From Alphaproteobacteria bacterium SS10 (GTDB taxonomy: Bacteria > Pseudomonadota > Alphaproteobacteria > TMED2), in contig JAHCML010000009.1 in assembly GCA_019192455.1 (NCBI GenBank), positions 62,001 to 126,000 on the forward strand: DNA of 64,000 nucleotides, written 5' to 3'. A program made the translations under genes and the position numbers. Of the stretch, positions 35,601 to 41,646 are shown one piece after another. The notes beneath the pieces were generated by a model. The model saw nothing but the letters and a program-made list of their open reading frames with translations, ran no database searches and had not been told where the DNA came from. Within the stretch, counting starts at the first letter, position 1; each line of letters opens with the position of its first letter.

Positions 35601-35834
35601 TTACGGCCTTGGTGGTGGGGTGGCCGTGGCTGCCTTTTCTGCTGCCCGCTTCGCCTTCACCACTTGCAGCAGGTGATAGAAGGGCGGGGTTGGTGGCCCG
35701 CTGACCTTTGGGCGCTCTGGCTTAATGCCGAGCTTGGCCGCTTGGCGATCCTCTTCCAGCGCATCGAGCAGATGCTGAAGTGAGCCGTGCTTAACCGGCG
35801 TGCCAGGTGTTGGATTGTTGGGGGTTGGCGTCAT
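35601..35834 (-). CDS. small protein of unknown function
   Basis: The 77-residue product is not recognised. Its ends are Pro/Thr-rich (MTPTPNNPTPGTP and ATPPPRP) and the middle is a charged helix-like part, SLQHLLDALEEDRQAAKLG. GGAGA lies about eleven bases before the ATG at 35834, supporting translation. It lies 35 bases downstream of the first tandem unknown gene on the same strand and could be its operon partner. Confidence 0.6.
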   Translation of the reverse strand: MTPTPNNPTPGTPVKHGSLQHLLDALEEDRQAAKLGIKPERPKVSGPPTPPFYHLLQVVKAKRAAEKAATATPPPRP

Positions 35835-35869: not shown

Positions 35870-37057
35870 TTACGGTGCGGGGGCAGCGTCAGCTTGTGAG
35901 GTTGGGCCACCCAGGGTTTGGTTCCGGGGCAGGGTTTCTGGACCAGGCGTGGTGGGCTCAACCGCGTCACCGGCAATTGGGTCGCCGGGCTGCAGGCCCT
36001 CAGCCTTCAGGATGGCGGCCAGGTCAGGGTTGCGGCGGATGGCAACAACGGCTGAGCTCATGCCCTCAAGCAGTTGGCGTGCGGTGATCCGGGTGCCCGG
36101 GTCGTCAGAGTCTTTCCACTCCTGATAATGGCTGCGGGCCGCCAAGATGCTCTCGACCGGGTTCTCACGTTGGTTGGTAATCAGCGCCCGCGATTGGGTG
36201 ACCATGTCCAGCATGTTGGCCATGTAGTGCAGGTTGGTGCGGCCAATATCGCGCATGGCGGCCAGGGTCTCCGCCAGCTCACCCTCGGCGCGGGGCGGCT
36301 TGTCCATCGTGTCGTACTGGCGGCGTAGGCGGTTCGCCTGTCCGCGATGATGGGTGGCCTCGCGTGCCATGTTGACCAGGCCGGTCAGCTGGGTGCGGGC
36401 GTTCAGCCGCTCCTCATTCTCAGACCCGAAACCGAGATAGCGTCGGCCACCCTTCAGCTCGCCCAGGATCTCTGGGTTCTCTTCAACCTGTTGAGCGGCG
36501 GCTTCCAGGGCATCCTCGCCCAGCTCGCGGCGTAGTTCCGACCATTTACGGCGTGCCACGGCAGGCTCGTCATAGGCGCGGATGATCGCATTCTCGATGC
36601 TGCTTTCCGCAATGTTGGCGCGGCCGCCTTGCTCGCTCATCTGGCGGGCCACATGGCTGCGACGGGCCATTTGATCGCGCCAGGCAATGGCGGTGTCCAA
36701 ACGCTCCGGCGTTAGATAGGTGCTGAGCCAGGCCGCACGTTCGGCAACCACCTCAAGGGCGCGTTGGCGGCTCGGCAGGCCATTCATGGTGGAGCAGGCG
36801 CCAATAATCACATGATGGCCCATGCTTTTGTTCAGCTCATCTGACTCATGCAGGGTTGGGGCATCGCGATCCGCCATCTTGCGGATGTCAAACATGTGGT
36901 TGTCGAGCTGACCCTGACCAAGGAAGGGGATCGGGTCGCGCCAGGCCGGCATGGCCGACTGATCAGGCGTGGCCTCCTGTTCATGCCCCATCGTGCTCAA
37001 ACGCTCGAGCAGCGTCGCATAGGCGCCGGGTGAGCCGTCATACCGATGGGGATGCAT
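35870..37057 (-). CDS. unknown protein, tandem paralogue A
   Basis: I do not recognise this family. From the ATG at 37057, which has a strong GGGAGG site eight bases upstream, the product is 395 residues. It has no signal peptide or membrane helix and is predicted mostly helical and polar. It is a clear paralogue of the next gene: shared segments are the N-terminal MHP(H/L)(R/K)Y(D/N)GSPG, RAAWLSTYLTPE, TAIAWRDQMA versus RAIAWRDQVA, LKGG, RRQYDTM versus RRQYDAM, and AMRDIGRTNLHYM versus AMRDINSINLHYM. The C-terminal 35 residues are Pro/Gly-rich and probably disordered. The open frame extends 118 codons further upstream, but that part lacks similarity to the paralogue. Confidence 0.85.
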   Translation of the reverse strand: MHPHRYDGSPGAYATLLERLSTMGHEQEATPDQSAMPAWRDPIPFLGQGQLDNHMFDIRKMADRDAPTLHESDELNKSMGHHVIIGACSTMNGLPSRQRALEVVAERAAWLSTYLTPERLDTAIAWRDQMARRSHVARQMSEQGGRANIAESSIENAIIRAYDEPAVARRKWSELRRELGEDALEAAAQQVEENPEILGELKGGRRYLGFGSENEERLNARTQLTGLVNMAREATHHRGQANRLRRQYDTMDKPPRAEGELAETLAAMRDIGRTNLHYMANMLDMVTQSRALITNQRENPVESILAARSHYQEWKDSDDPGTRITARQLLEGMSSAVVAIRRNPDLAAILKAEGLQPGDPIAGDAVEPTTPGPETLPRNQTLGGPTSQADAAPAP

Positions 37058-37096
37058 AGGTTTCCTCCCTTGAGACAATGGGGTGCGTTTGATGAT

Positions 37097-37173
37097 GTTT
37101 TGTATACTATATAAGTAACAATCGGGCCATAAAAATCTGCATTGTTTCCTTAAATTAGACAAAAAATCTGTCG
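37097..37173 (-). promoter_or_regulatory. conserved upstream region of paralogue A
   Basis: This 77-base AT-rich region aligns without gaps to the region upstream of paralogue B. Four identical blocks are, in transcription order, TTTTTGTCTA, GAAACAATG, ATTGTTAC and TATACAAAAC, separated by 7, 17 and 8 non-conserved bases. Its near edge is 40 bases before the ATG at 37057, exactly as for paralogue B. No standard -35/-10 pair fits convincingly. Confidence 0.7.
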
Positions 37174-37252
37174 ATTGACGCGTTTTGGGAGGAAAAATGG
37201 CGTCGAAACCAGGGTTGAGCCAGCGTGATACCGGCTGGGTGCTGCGCCACAA

Positions 37253-37295
37253 CGCGAAAGGCCCGCCAGCGGAGGATGGGATCGCTGGTCGAGCC
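37253..37295 (-). terminator. possible terminator of paralogue B
   Basis: On the minus strand GGC-CCAGCG pairs with CGCTGG-GCC around a central loop with a small internal loop, then TTTCG follows. The T run is weak, so this may only be a stem-loop. Confidence 0.35.
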
Positions 37296-37325
37296 TTTGC
37301 GGTAGGGCCTAAATTGTGGGGGTAA

Positions 37326-38474
37326 TTAGGCCAGATTGCTGGGTCCGGTGCGCTCCGGGCTGCGGGCGGTGCCTGGTCGCTTCTTGTCGGCCAGCGGGTT
37401 GGTTGGCTCAATGCCCTGGGCGCGAAGGCTGGCCGACAGGCTTGGGTCGTCCATGATGGCGGTGAAGGCTGGGGCCAGGCCCTGCCTTAGGCTGCGGGCG
37501 GCGCTGCGGCTGCCCATGTCATCCTGGGCAATCAGATCATGGTACAGCTCTCTTGCCGCCACGACGGTGGTGACCGGATCGGTTTCTTGGCCGGCGATCA
37601 GCGCCTGTGCCCTGGTCACCTTGTCTGCCATATCCATCATGTAATGCAGGTTGATGCTGTTGATGTCGCGCATGGCCATGAGGGTGTCTGCCACTTCGGC
37701 ATCGCCCCGGCCGGGCTTCTCCATGGCGTCGTATTGGCGGCGGATCTTGGTGATCTGCTGGCCATGATTGGCGATCTTGGCCGCTGATTGCGGCAGGGTG
37801 GCCAGGCTGTTGATCGCCTCTCGCCGTTCGGCATTGGGACCGCCGAGGCCAAGCCAGGTGTTACCACCTTTAAGGGTGCCAATAATCGATGGGTCCATCG
37901 ACACCTTGCGCGCTGCCGCAGCGAGGCCGCCCGTCTCGGGGGCAGAGACCAGCTCACCCCAAGCCTGTTTGGCGGCATCGGGATCGGTAAAGGCATTGGC
38001 CACCACCCGCTCCATCGCTCTGGTGTCTTGATTGATGTGGTTGCGGTTGTCGCTGATCTGGCTGCTGAGTTCGGCCACCTTGGCGACCTGGTCACGCCAA
38101 GCAATGGCGCGGTCCATCTTCTCCGGCGTTAGGTAGGTAGAGAGCCAGGCCGCGCGCTCGGTCAGGATGTCGAGGCTTTGCTGACGGGCGTCCAGGCCGT
38201 CTTTAACCGAATGGGCGCCGATAGTGGCGTGGTGGGTCATCGGTTGATCAAGCTGATCATCAGGGTGCAGCGTCGCGCCATCCCGGTCTGCCATGCCTTT
38301 CAGTACGGGCATATGGGCGTCGAGATCGGCGGTGGCGATATTCGGCAGAATGTCCTGCCAGCCGGGCATCGGCCCTGCCAGATCGTGGGCTGATCGCTTC
38401 TCACCCATGGTCGCTAGCCGCTCAAGCTGGGCCTCATAAGGGCCGGGCGAACCGTTGTATTTTAATGGGTGCAT
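37326..38474 (-). CDS. unknown protein, tandem paralogue B
   Basis: The 382-residue product is the paralogue of the preceding entry and is likewise unrecognised. The ATG at 38474 is preceded by GAGGAG seven bases away; three codons further upstream the open frame has no similarity to the paralogue. The protein is soluble and mainly helical, with the shared core running from the N-terminal MHPLKYNGSPG through RAAWLSTYLTPEKMDRAIAW, the LKGGNTWLGLGGPN loop and RRQYDAMEKPGRG to the MRDINSINLHYMMDMADKVT helix. The extreme C-terminus is basic and Pro-rich. Conservation is strongest in the N-terminal tag and in the central helices. Confidence 0.85.
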   Translation of the reverse strand: MHPLKYNGSPGPYEAQLERLATMGEKRSAHDLAGPMPGWQDILPNIATADLDAHMPVLKGMADRDGATLHPDDQLDQPMTHHATIGAHSVKDGLDARQQSLDILTERAAWLSTYLTPEKMDRAIAWRDQVAKVAELSSQISDNRNHINQDTRAMERVVANAFTDPDAAKQAWGELVSAPETGGLAAAARKVSMDPSIIGTLKGGNTWLGLGGPNAERREAINSLATLPQSAAKIANHGQQITKIRRQYDAMEKPGRGDAEVADTLMAMRDINSINLHYMMDMADKVTRAQALIAGQETDPVTTVVAARELYHDLIAQDDMGSRSAARSLRQGLAPAFTAIMDDPSLSASLRAQGIEPTNPLADKKRPGTARSPERTGPSNLA

Positions 38475-38513
38475 TGATCTACTCCTCGACAACAATCTCT
38501 TATCTGAACACTT

Positions 38514-38591
38514 GTTTTGTATATCAAATACGTAACAATAATCTTAGAAAGAGGCCCATTGTTTCTGATTAGTAGACAAAAATAGCAGTCG
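38514..38591 (-). promoter_or_regulatory. conserved upstream region of paralogue B
   Basis: Counterpart of the region upstream of paralogue A. The four blocks fall at positions 1-10, 19-26, 44-52 and 60-69 counted from the gene-proximal end in both copies, while the bases between them have largely diverged. The distance to the ATG is again 40 bases. Confidence 0.7.
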
Positions 38592-38704: not shown

Positions 38705-39544
38705 CTAGGTCGCGGCGACGATCTTGCGGATTTGCTTCTTCGGAATCATCAAGCTTGTGCAGCAGCGCTCCAGGAATTTCTTCTCAGACTTGTCCACGGA
38801 GCCGTCGGCTGCTGCCAACATGCGGATACCATCAATGACCATTAGGCGTTGGGGTGGTTTAAGGCCGGCTGCGATCGCGCTCAGGTAATCGGTCAGATCT
38901 TTTTCTTCCAGCGTATGTGTGGCGATCGCATTTCTTATCTCGCCTTGCTTCACCTCTTGGCCGGTGATTTTCGACATATAGTCGGCGATTAGCGCCACCT
39001 CACGTGGGTCAATCTCACCATCTGCCTTGGCGGTCGCGATCAGCACCTCACGGAGAAGATCGGCAAATGAACTGCCAGCCTCGGCGTGAAACTTCTTCGT
39101 TGCTCGTTTGGCTTTTCTAACTGATTGGACAATCAATAAGATCAGCAGCAGCAGGCCCGGCCAGAAGGCATAGCCAAACACGTAGGTGGCAGCTGGGATC
39201 TCGCTCGGCGGTAGGGGATCTGGCAATACGCCAAGTGATTGCAGTTGCGCTATCTTCTCGGCATCCATCGGCCAGTATTTGTCGGTCCCGTTGGCTTCAA
39301 TGACCAGGCCCTTATCAACCACGTAGACACCGAGGCCGAGCCAGAATGTCGTGGCTAAGTGTGACAGGCGCCCATTATTTGCCCATTCACTCGGCAGGCT
39401 GGATGCCAGCCCGGGGGGAATGGTGACCGACGCTACCTTGGTCGTGCTGTCGTCATTGCCAACTCGGATTTTAGCTTCCGCCTCACTTGGCATACTCAAA
39501 CTTAAAACCAGCAGGCAAATCACCACCGACAGCAAACGCATCAT
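38705..39544 (-). CDS. TerB-like domain membrane protein
   Basis: The 279-residue product starts with a signal peptide (LLSVVICLLVLSLSMPSEAEA), has an external domain of about 95 residues, one membrane helix (about 121-141, PAATYVFGYAFWPGLLLLIL) and a cytosolic TerB-like helical domain (150-279). The two acidic motifs of TerB-type domains are present as KADGEIDPREVALI and AADGSVDKSEKKFLE. TerB domains occur in tellurite-resistance and membrane stress systems; the partner here is not apparent, as no ter genes are nearby. The external part is unlike anything I recognise. Confidence 0.8.
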   Translation of the reverse strand: MMRLLSVVICLLVLSLSMPSEAEAKIRVGNDDSTTKVASVTIPPGLASSLPSEWANNGRLSHLATTFWLGLGVYVVDKGLVIEANGTDKYWPMDAEKIAQLQSLGVLPDPLPPSEIPAATYVFGYAFWPGLLLLILLIVQSVRKAKRATKKFHAEAGSSFADLLREVLIATAKADGEIDPREVALIADYMSKITGQEVKQGEIRNAIATHTLEEKDLTDYLSAIAAGLKPPQRLMVIDGIRMLAAADGSVDKSEKKFLERCCTSLMIPKKQIRKIVAAT

Positions 39545-39641: not shown

Positions 39642-40538
39642 TCAAACCATGTTGTTCATGGCGAAGCGGGCCAGGCGGTTATAGAGCGGCGGCGGTGCCA
39701 GCTGGCCGGGCAGCTCTGGTAGGCGCAGCAGGTCTGGCCAGTGGGTGTCAGGCATATCGATGCCCCAGGCCCGGCGAAGTTTCTGCAGGCTGGGTGGCAG
39801 TAGGGCCAGGGCCTTGCGGATGCCCGCTGGGCAATCGGTGATGATGGTGCCAACCCCGGTGGCGATCAGGCTGGTCGCCAGGCGTGGATGGTTAATCGTC
39901 CAGGCCACCACTGGTAGGTTCGCCGCCCGCAAATCGGCCATCTGTGCCGTGGTGATATGCATGCCGTTCAGATGGATGGCTGACAGCTCCAACCGTTGAT
40001 GCAGGCGCCGCCAATCTTTGGGCAATCGATTGGCCAGAAGGCCGCGCGGGTAGCCAGGCGCATCACGCCGTGCCGCCAACAAGGATTTGGCCGAGAAGCT
40101 GGAGAGTAATGGCGGTGGCTCACCCTTTGGCCAATAGGCCTTAATCGCCTCGGTCACGGCGAGGGCGGTCGTTCGCTCCCGCCCGATACAGGGCTTAATC
40201 TCGATATTTGGGGTGATACCCAGAAGGGCGCAGCGGGCCAGCGCTTCGGGCAGGGTGGGCACGGCCTCACCGGTGAAGCTGTCATGGAACCGGTAACCGG
40301 CATCAAGATGGCGGATGGTGCGGTAACTGGTGTCGCGGACCAGGGCACGATGACCGGTGGTACGCTTTAAGCTGACATCATGCATCAGGATCGGGATGCC
40401 ATCTGCGGTCAGCTTAACGTCGAACTCGACCCAACTGGCCCCTTCCCGTGCCGCTTGATCAATACCGGCCAGGGTGTTTTCCGGGGCTAGTCTCATGGCC
40501 CCCCGGTGGCCGATGACACGCGGCAGTTCAAGCTGCAT
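39642..40538 (-). CDS. glycerophosphodiester phosphodiesterase
   Basis: GDPD enzymes hydrolyse glycerophosphodiesters to sn-glycerol 3-phosphate and an alcohol. The catalytic features are visible: VIGHRGAMRLAPENT, EFDVKLTADGIPILMHD and the later IEIKP. The ATG at 40538 gives 298 residues and has GAGGAGG about six bases upstream; a GTG at 40559 lies before that site and is unlikely. No signal peptide, so a cytosolic enzyme. A C-terminal extension of about 50 residues follows the barrel. Confidence 0.93.
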   Translation of the reverse strand: MQLELPRVIGHRGAMRLAPENTLAGIDQAAREGASWVEFDVKLTADGIPILMHDVSLKRTTGHRALVRDTSYRTIRHLDAGYRFHDSFTGEAVPTLPEALARCALLGITPNIEIKPCIGRERTTALAVTEAIKAYWPKGEPPPLLSSFSAKSLLAARRDAPGYPRGLLANRLPKDWRRLHQRLELSAIHLNGMHITTAQMADLRAANLPVVAWTINHPRLATSLIATGVGTIITDCPAGIRKALALLPPSLQKLRRAWGIDMPDTHWPDLLRLPELPGQLAPPPLYNRLARFAMNNMV

Positions 40539-40875
40539 CGTCGCCTCCTCGGTGGCCACCTTGCCGACCAGCTGGCCAAACAGGGTGCGGGGTCCAATCT
40601 CTCGTTTTTGGACATGGCCGTTCCGATCTCACGCCGCTGGTCGAAACTTTGCCAGCAAAACAAAACTGGAACGCACACATCATTGCGGAGGTGTATGCGG
40701 GGGAAGTGTTACGGTTTCGCTAAAGTCCCTTGACGGAACTGTTAAATCGGTCGGGCCCGGTGGTTTTGCGCCAGTTTGTTACGTAAGCGTGGGTGATTGG
40801 CGCATGGTTGTGTCGCCCAAGACACGAGTGAGAAGGTGAAGAGCCAGGGTTTTACTGGCTCTGGACTAGGTTTCC
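40539..40875. other. intergenic region between the two phosphodiesterase genes
   Basis: This 337-base gap contains the ribosome-binding site of the downstream gene and a perfect 8-pair stem-loop, AGAGCCAG (40840-40847) with CTGGCTCT (40855-40862), 13 bases past the stop of the upstream gene. The stem lacks a good T run on either strand. Nothing else was recognised. Confidence 0.45.
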
Positions 40876-41646
40876 CTAATGCGAGTCATTGAGGGTAATC
40901 TGCCGCCTGGGTTGGGCATCCAGGATCGGCTTCAGGGTTTTGGGCGTATCGGTGAACACGCCCTCAACACCCCAGGCTAGCAACTCATGCATTTGGTCAG
41001 TATCATTGACGGTATACACTAGCACGTGTCGACCCGTCGATTTGAATGCCGCCACCTCCTCGGCCGTGACGCGATCCCCGTTCACATTGATGGTTGCCAC
41101 CGTTAGCCGATCCGCGATTTCCCGCCAATCATCCGGCTTGTCCCAGATCAGGTAGCCGCGCGGCCATTCGGGTGCCTCCCGCTTGGCAACCTCCAACGCC
41201 TCGATTGAAAAACTGGAGATAAAGGGTGGCGGCGCATCACTGGGCCAACAGGCCTTAAGGGTGGCCATAACCGCCATCGCCGTCTCGACATCCCTATTGG
41301 GGGCCACCTTGATCTCAACATTCGCCGTTAGCCCTAGGGCGTGGACCAGCTCGATGGCGTCCTCAAGTGTGGGGATTGGCTGGCCATTGCCTGCATCCAG
41401 CTCCCGAAGCGCTGCAAAGGGTGTTTTGTCCACCTGCCCAGTGCCGTTGGTCGTGCGGTCCAGGGTGTCATCGTGGAACAGGATGGTTTGGGGTGGGGTA
41501 TCGCCGCTGATGGTGGCATCGAACTCCACCATCGGTGCGCCCTGTGCGCTGGCTTCGCGAATGCTGGCGAGGGTGTTTTCAGGCGCGTGGGCCGCTGCCC
41601 CGCGATGGCCGATCAGTAAGGGTAAGGTGAGGGTTAGCGGCCTCAT
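40876..41646 (-). CDS. glycerophosphodiester phosphodiesterase, second copy
   Basis: The 256-residue protein is a paralogue of the gene at 39642. It has LLIGHRGAAAHAPENTLASI, the acidic MVEFDATISGD, ILFHDDTLDRTTNG and NVEIKVAP, so all catalytic positions are kept. It lacks the C-terminal extension of the other copy. It begins 34 bases after the methyltransferase gene, across a 14-base tandem repeat. Confidence 0.93.
   Translation of the reverse strand: MRPLTLTLPLLIGHRGAAAHAPENTLASIREASAQGAPMVEFDATISGDTPPQTILFHDDTLDRTTNGTGQVDKTPFAALRELDAGNGQPIPTLEDAIELVHALGLTANVEIKVAPNRDVETAMAVMATLKACWPSDAPPPFISSFSIEALEVAKREAPEWPRGYLIWDKPDDWREIADRLTVATINVNGDRVTAEEVAAFKSTGRHVLVYTVNDTDQMHELLAWGVEGVFTDTPKTLKPILDAQPRRQITLNDSH

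What the first reader, a model, noticed from the sequence alone, without database searches (positions are those of the whole stretch)
35870..38591. Tandem paralogous genes of unknown function with phase-conserved upstream blocks
Two adjacent genes encode clearly related soluble proteins of 395 and 382 residues that I cannot place in any family. Upstream of each, at the same 40-base distance from the ATG, four identical blocks (10, 8, 9 and 10 bases) occur at identical spacing without any gap, while the bases between them have diverged. This is strong evidence of selection on a shared promoter or operator and of coordinated expression. Flanking DNA is AT-rich compared with neighbours.
Basis: seen in the sequence. 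Interest (0 to 1): 0.82.

Follow-up and report, generated by a model that had tools for sequence, protein, structure and literature searches.

The report
Paired BID-domain genes with shared operator
Two neighbouring genes that looked family-less encode proteins with a BID domain, the docking tag that lets proteins leave bacteria through type IV secretion machines, and this bacterium's only such machine is of the Dot/Icm type rather than the type the tag is normally tied to.

Summary
Two genes (35870-37057 and 37326-38474, minus strand; 395 and 382 aa, 44% identical) share four exact upstream blocks (38 bases) in register from -108 to -39, while the spacers are at background (10/32). The duplication is old: third codon positions are 44% identical (32% by chance), so the blocks look like conserved regulatory DNA. 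The blocks form two TTGT-N13/14-ACAA dyads 42 bp apart. The composite occurs nowhere else in the 3.19 Mb genome, so it is a private, pair-specific operator, not a regulon.

The family question is partly solved. Residues ~130-250 are a BID domain. Support: weak Pfam hits in both proteins, Foldseek top hits to BID crystal structures, a profile of this genome's five such proteins finding only BID structures in the PDB, and reciprocal profile hits with BID relaxases. Three further BID proteins are encoded elsewhere in the genome. Its only detected coupling protein is DotL, part of a chromosomal Dot/Icm (type IVB) system. Rhizobiales plasmids chosen only for Dot/Icm genes also carry BID relaxases and Fic-BID toxins.

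Most likely they are translocated substrates of this Dot/Icm system. Translocation and target are untested. The N- and C-terminal parts match no known family.

The parts
35870..37057 (-). Gene 1, 395 aa BID-domain protein (BID about residues 150-245; C-terminal helical part about 250-360; net-negative tail)
37326..38474 (-). Gene 2, 382 aa paralogue, BID domain about residues 130-250, C-terminal helical bundle about 256-352
37096..37165 (-). Four-block upstream element of gene 1 (blocks 37156-37165, 37140-37148, 37115-37122, 37096-37106); two TTGT-N13/14-ACAA dyads
38513..38582 (-). Four-block upstream element of gene 2 (blocks 38573-38582, 38557-38565, 38532-38539, 38513-38523), same spacing
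35601..35834 (-). Possible third small ORF (77 aa) downstream of gene 1 on the same strand; may be co-transcribed, coding status unproven

Best explanation
The two genes are an old tandem duplication of a BID-domain protein. The BID domain (middle of each protein) is the docking module that a type IV coupling ATPase recognises. In this bacterium the only detectable coupling protein is DotL (with DotM) of a chromosomal Dot/Icm-like (type IVB) system, so the proteins are most likely translocated through that machine into neighbouring cells, bacterial or eukaryotic. Each gene has its own copy of a composite operator (two TTGT-N13/14-ACAA dyads four helical turns apart, probably bound cooperatively by a dimeric regulator at the promoter), which co-regulates the pair separately from the other three BID genes. 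Shown: the BID homology and fold, the Dot/Icm gene set, the absence of a second detectable coupling protein, the operator conservation. Inferred: translocation, DotL recognition, target, identity of the regulator.
For: BID homology. Pfam PF17841 hits both proteins independently at the same place (E 4e-4 and 9e-4, below cut-off). An own-genome PF17841 search also finds two further loci. A profile of the five BID regions, run against the PDB, hits only BID structures 4yk2 (E 0.0026) and 4yk3 (E 0.0049). Foldseek's best PDB matches to the AF2 model are BID domains (probability 0.94-0.99); VIA Z 9.3, rmsd 2.9 over 101 residues to 4yk2. In 385 Alphaproteobacteria genomes the strongest foreign hits are C-termini of relaxases (ORFs), and a profile of only those relaxases finds gene 1 at 2.4e-9 and gene 2 at 1.7e-6. 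T4BSS: DotA, DotM, DotL/TrbC, DotB, DotD, DotI and DotH all detected; PF02534 finds one coupling protein only. BID plus T4BSS elsewhere: Rhizobiales plasmids picked by DotI alone carry Fic-BID toxins and BID TraA relaxases found by the own-protein profile (E 1e-8 to 5e-5; best reversed decoy 0.31), with Pfam BID above cut-off in three Fic proteins. Operator.
Against: No translocation data. The positively charged tail that completes the known BID signal is missing in gene 1 (net -2) and weak in gene 2 (+2). The Dot/Icm plasmids with BID substrates use a TraD/TrwB-like coupling protein, not a DotL like this one, while alphaproteobacterial I-type plasmids with a true DotL (Beijerinckia, Acetobacter) carry no BID on the stretches read. 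In 385 genomes only this one has both A2-type BID and DotM. The genes are far from the dot/icm loci (contig C9 against C3). No catalytic domain was found.
Confidence: 0.6

Rival explanations
1. BID-domain proteins that are remnants of a lost VirB/VirD4 or conjugative element: former relaxase or toxin tails retained with a housekeeping, non-secreted role.
For: BID domains are classically tied to VirB/VirD4 (PMC6509941), which was not detected here; gene 1 lacks a charged tail; the genes are far from dot/icm genes.
Against: Five divergent copies with conserved BID motifs and intact frames, and a conserved dedicated operator, point to maintained function; a complete-looking T4BSS is present.
Confidence: 0.2
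2. The proteins are not translocated but act inside the cell as adaptors or regulators of the Dot/Icm system or of an unrelated process; the BID fold is only a helical scaffold.
For: N-terminal ~115 residues and C-terminal bundle match no effector or enzyme family.
Against: In the characterised cases reviewed, BID is part of a secretion signal (PMC6509941); plasmids with Dot/Icm carry BID on proteins that must leave the cell, the relaxases.
Confidence: 0.15
3. The upstream blocks are residual identity of a recent duplication rather than a selected operator.
For: The genes are tandem paralogues.
Against: Spacers are 31% identical and third codon positions 44% (32% by chance) while 38/38 block bases are identical.
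Confidence: 0.04

Closest known systems
BID (Bep intracellular delivery) domain, Pfam PF17841; structures 4yk1, 4yk2, 4yk3
   Same: Predicted four-helix fold, DP..A......P..lG.l.G..R..A motif, reciprocal profile hits.
   Different: Below Pfam's curated cut-off; domain is internal and followed by another ~100-residue helical part; no FIC, zeta or relaxase domain; gene 1 tail not basic.
Bartonella effector proteins (Beps) and VbhT
   Same: Expanded paralogous set of BID proteins in one genome, probably secretion substrates.
   Different: No FIC domain found; not linked to VirB/VirD4; unrelated N-terminus.
Fic-BID toxins and TraA relaxases on Dot/Icm-bearing Rhizobiales plasmids (Aminobacter pSR4, Sinorhizobium pSS05631d, Shinella unnamed7)
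   Same: Detected by the window-genome BID profile; the transfer machine on the same plasmid is also type IVB.
   Different: Plasmid-borne, TraD/TrwB-like coupling protein, known enzymatic domains; here apparently chromosomal, DotL, no enzyme domain found.
Zeta/BID gene downstream of icmL on Rhizobiaceae linear plasmids (PMC13293297)
   Same: A BID-like gene with a Dot/Icm system in Alphaproteobacteria; published as speculation.
   Different: Zeta toxin architecture on a plasmid.

Membership tests
BID domain (PF17841) | Homologous sequence profile | tested here: met
   Weak direct hits in both paralogues; only BID structures hit in the PDB by the family profile; reciprocal hits with relaxase BIDs. 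Score is below Pfam's curated cut-off and NCBIfam NF033856 did not ring.
[quoted passage not shown]
   AF2 model residues 131-250 mostly pLDDT 85-92; Foldseek top hits are BID, probability 0.94-0.99; VIA Z 9.3 to 4yk2, modest for a helical fold.
BID type IV secretion signal (tBID) | C-terminal position with a positively charged tail | tested here: not met
   Domain is internal; tail net charge -2 in gene 1, +2 in gene 2.
Bep / VirB-VirD4 BID substrate | Genetic link to a VirD4-type coupling protein | tested here: not met
   PF02534 finds a single coupling protein in the genome, DotL/TrbC-like; TraD/TrwB types would score higher.
Bep / VirB-VirD4 BID substrate | FIC, zeta or relaxase catalytic domain, or pY repeats | tested here: not met
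   Pfam, PHROGs and NCBIfam show none; pY motifs not tested.
[quoted passage not shown]
Type IV secretion effector | Translocation dependent on the apparatus | not testable with these tools
   Needs an experiment.
Composite operator / regulon | More than two copies of the pattern in the genome | tested here: not met
   searches find only the two copies; other BID genes lack it.

The most novel reading that the evidence does not exclude
BID is not a private signal of VirB/VirD4 but a general alphaproteobacterial export tag that DotL/DotM of type IVB systems can also read; this lineage uses a chromosomal Dot/Icm machine to deliver a small BID effector family of a new architecture, with one pair under its own composite operator.
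Probability: 0.4. Interest if true: 0.72.

Novelty: new variant of a known kind. Interest (0 to 1): 0.58.

Why it matters
BID signals have been described as tied to one VirD4 sublineage (PMC6509941). A set of BID proteins with DotL as the only detected coupling protein, plus Dot/Icm plasmids whose relaxases and Fic toxins carry BID, would mean that one docking module works with two very different secretion machines. That makes coupling-protein recognition of BID directly testable, and gives a way to look for Dot/Icm effectors in Alphaproteobacteria.

Tried and rejected
Full-length homologues: none in 57 other genomes of the class, plasmids and phages, GTDB contigs with two pattern sets or viral contigs. 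The contig scans rest on short conserved peptides and can miss relatives. PHROGs and NCBIfam gave no family; viral structure library nothing convincing. RNA element: the two leaders fold differently (z 0.35 and -1.6) and Rfam finds nothing. Standard sigma-70 scan: no promoter at the blocks. Regulon: rejected; one search used a wrong spacer length and says nothing. Second BID in the C-terminal part: suggested by motif register (DPSL..LRAQG) but hhalign probability 0.4% and no BID among fold hits of a good model (pLDDT 87.6), so not claimed. BID on Beijerinckia and Acetobacter I-type plasmid stretches: not found.

Full report
Observation. Gene 1 is 35870-37057(-), 395 aa; gene 2 is 37326-38474(-), 382 aa. 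Aligned from the ATG without gaps, the leaders share TTTTTGTCTA, GAAACAATG, ATTGTTAC and TATACAAAACA between -108 and -39: 38 of 38 block bases against 10 of 32 spacer bases; shuffles never exceeded 12. The coding regions are 58/63/44% identical at codon positions 1/2/3, where 32% is expected by chance at position 3. Synonymous sites are therefore close to saturation and the blocks are unlikely to be passive residue of a recent copy.

Anatomy of the element. Each block holds a TTGT or ACAA core: TTGT-N13-ACAA, then TTGT-N14-ACAA, 42 bp apart, i.e. two dyads on one face of the helix (inference from spacing). Only six such dyads exist in the 64 kb window, four of them here. The whole 70-bp element is itself nearly palindromic: its reverse complement matches 22-23 of 38 block positions, at or just above the shuffle maximum of 22. 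Pattern searches of the whole 3.19 Mb genome find only these two copies, even with three mismatches for the ATTGTTAC-TATACAAAA half, and the other BID genes lack it. The two leaders do not share an RNA fold and Rfam has no match. I read it as a private composite operator at the promoter of each gene; the regulator is unknown and no consensus sigma-70 promoter was recognised there.

What the proteins are. Pfam gives a weak BID match (PF17841) at the same place in both paralogues (E 4e-4 and 9e-4, below the curated cut-off). Searching the genome with PF17841 finds the pair plus two loci on contig C3; a third C3 protein is recognised from its neighbourhood and the alignment. A profile of these five regions finds only these five in the genome. 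In the PDB it finds only two sequences, both BID crystal structures (4yk2 E 0.0026, 4yk3 E 0.0049). The AlphaFold2 model of gene 2 is good only in parts (mean pLDDT 61; residues 131-250 mostly 85-92), and Foldseek ranks BID domains at the top of the PDB for it (probability 0.94-0.99, though E values are not small); VIA-align Z 9.3, rmsd 2.9 over 101 residues to 4yk2, a value that alone would be modest for a helical fold.

Independent confirmation. In 385 alphaproteobacterial genomes the strongest foreign matches of that profile are C-termini of proteins that read as MobA/VirD2-type relaxases (ORFs; relaxase identity from their N-terminal sequence, not from a family search), where BID domains are known to occur (PMC6509941). 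A profile made only of those relaxase segments finds gene 1 at 2.4e-9 and gene 2 at 1.7e-6 as its next hits (small ORF database). Motif shared: DP..A......(D/N)P..lG.l.G....R..A. I therefore accept BID homology with about 95% confidence.

Which machine. A single coupling protein is detected in the genome by PF02534. It is DotL/TrbC-like (36% to a Beijerinckia DotL). Around it and at C3:1500000-1521000 lie DotA, DotM, DotB, DotD, DotI, DotH and others. TraD/TrwB-type coupling proteins score better with PF02534 than this DotL does, so a second coupling protein should have been seen. DotM occurs in 13 of 385 genomes sampled, and only this one also has the BID profile match.

Is BID with type IVB found elsewhere? 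Plasmids were chosen by similarity to this genome's DotI only. The four alphaproteobacterial ones read (Aminobacter pSR4, Sinorhizobium pSS05631d, Shinella unnamed7, Martelella pMM259) all carry Ti-type TraA relaxases, and three carry Fic proteins, two of these beside an annotated VbhA antitoxin. The own-protein BID profile hits these Fic and TraA proteins at 1e-8 to 5e-5, against 0.31 for the best reversed decoy, and Pfam puts BID above cut-off in the three Fic proteins. No virB gene is annotated on the three plasmids read completely, but the PLSDB gene table is incomplete and pMM259 is also typed MPF_T. Their coupling protein is TraD/TrwB-like. Beijerinckia and Acetobacter I-type plasmids with a true DotL and MobF relaxase show no BID on the stretches read. 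A published report noted a Zeta/BID gene next to icmL on Rhizobiaceae linear plasmids and called its function highly speculative (PMC13293297). So BID substrates do accompany type IVB channels, but a DotL-BID pair is so far seen only here.

Mechanism and limits. Best reading: two co-regulated, divergent substrates of the chromosomal Dot/Icm system, docked by BID on DotL/DotM and delivered to another cell. Translocation, docking partner, recipient and activity are inferred. The known bipartite signal includes a basic C-terminal tail (PMC6509941); gene 1 lacks it (-2) and gene 2 is only +2. The N-terminal ~115 residues are poorly predicted; the C-terminal ~100 residues form a confident helical bundle (pLDDT 87.6) with no specific fold match.

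Verdict. New variant of a known kind.

Noticed in passing
L015 9591-10859(-) (genome contig C3, next to a BID gene): 422 aa protein with an HENTH zincin-like motif and a weak match to putative metallopeptidase family DUF6782 (below cut-off), adjacent to a BID-domain gene: possible effector enzyme.
   Followed up: partly
L016 8299-9144(-) and 9227-10297(-): A second tandem pair of BID-domain genes (281 and 356 aa), without the four-block operator.
   Followed up: partly
L053 11922-12329(-) and 12400-12801(-): Two adjacent short membrane/pilin-like genes within the dot/icm cluster whose C-terminal two thirds look identical, a recent tandem duplication or gene conversion.
   Followed up: no
window 35601-35834(-): 77 aa proline-rich ORF just downstream of gene 1, possibly the third gene of the unit.
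   Followed up: no
window 38705-39544(-): Gene upstream of gene 2 encodes a TerB-domain protein (PF05099).
   Followed up: partly
window 39642-40559(-) and 40876-41646(-): Two neighbouring paralogues that look like glycerophosphodiester phosphodiesterases (IGHRGA..PENTL motif, from memory).
   Followed up: no
L059, L060, L061, L062 (Rhizobiales plasmids): Dot/Icm channel combined with Ti-type TraA relaxase, TraD/TrwB-like coupling protein and (in three of four) Fic-BID toxin: a hybrid conjugation system with an I-type channel and BID substrates.
   Followed up: partly
L049 1324-2055(-) and L051 4131-5039(-): Stand-alone BID-like proteins in two other alphaproteobacterial genomes in which DotM was not detected.
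   Followed up: no
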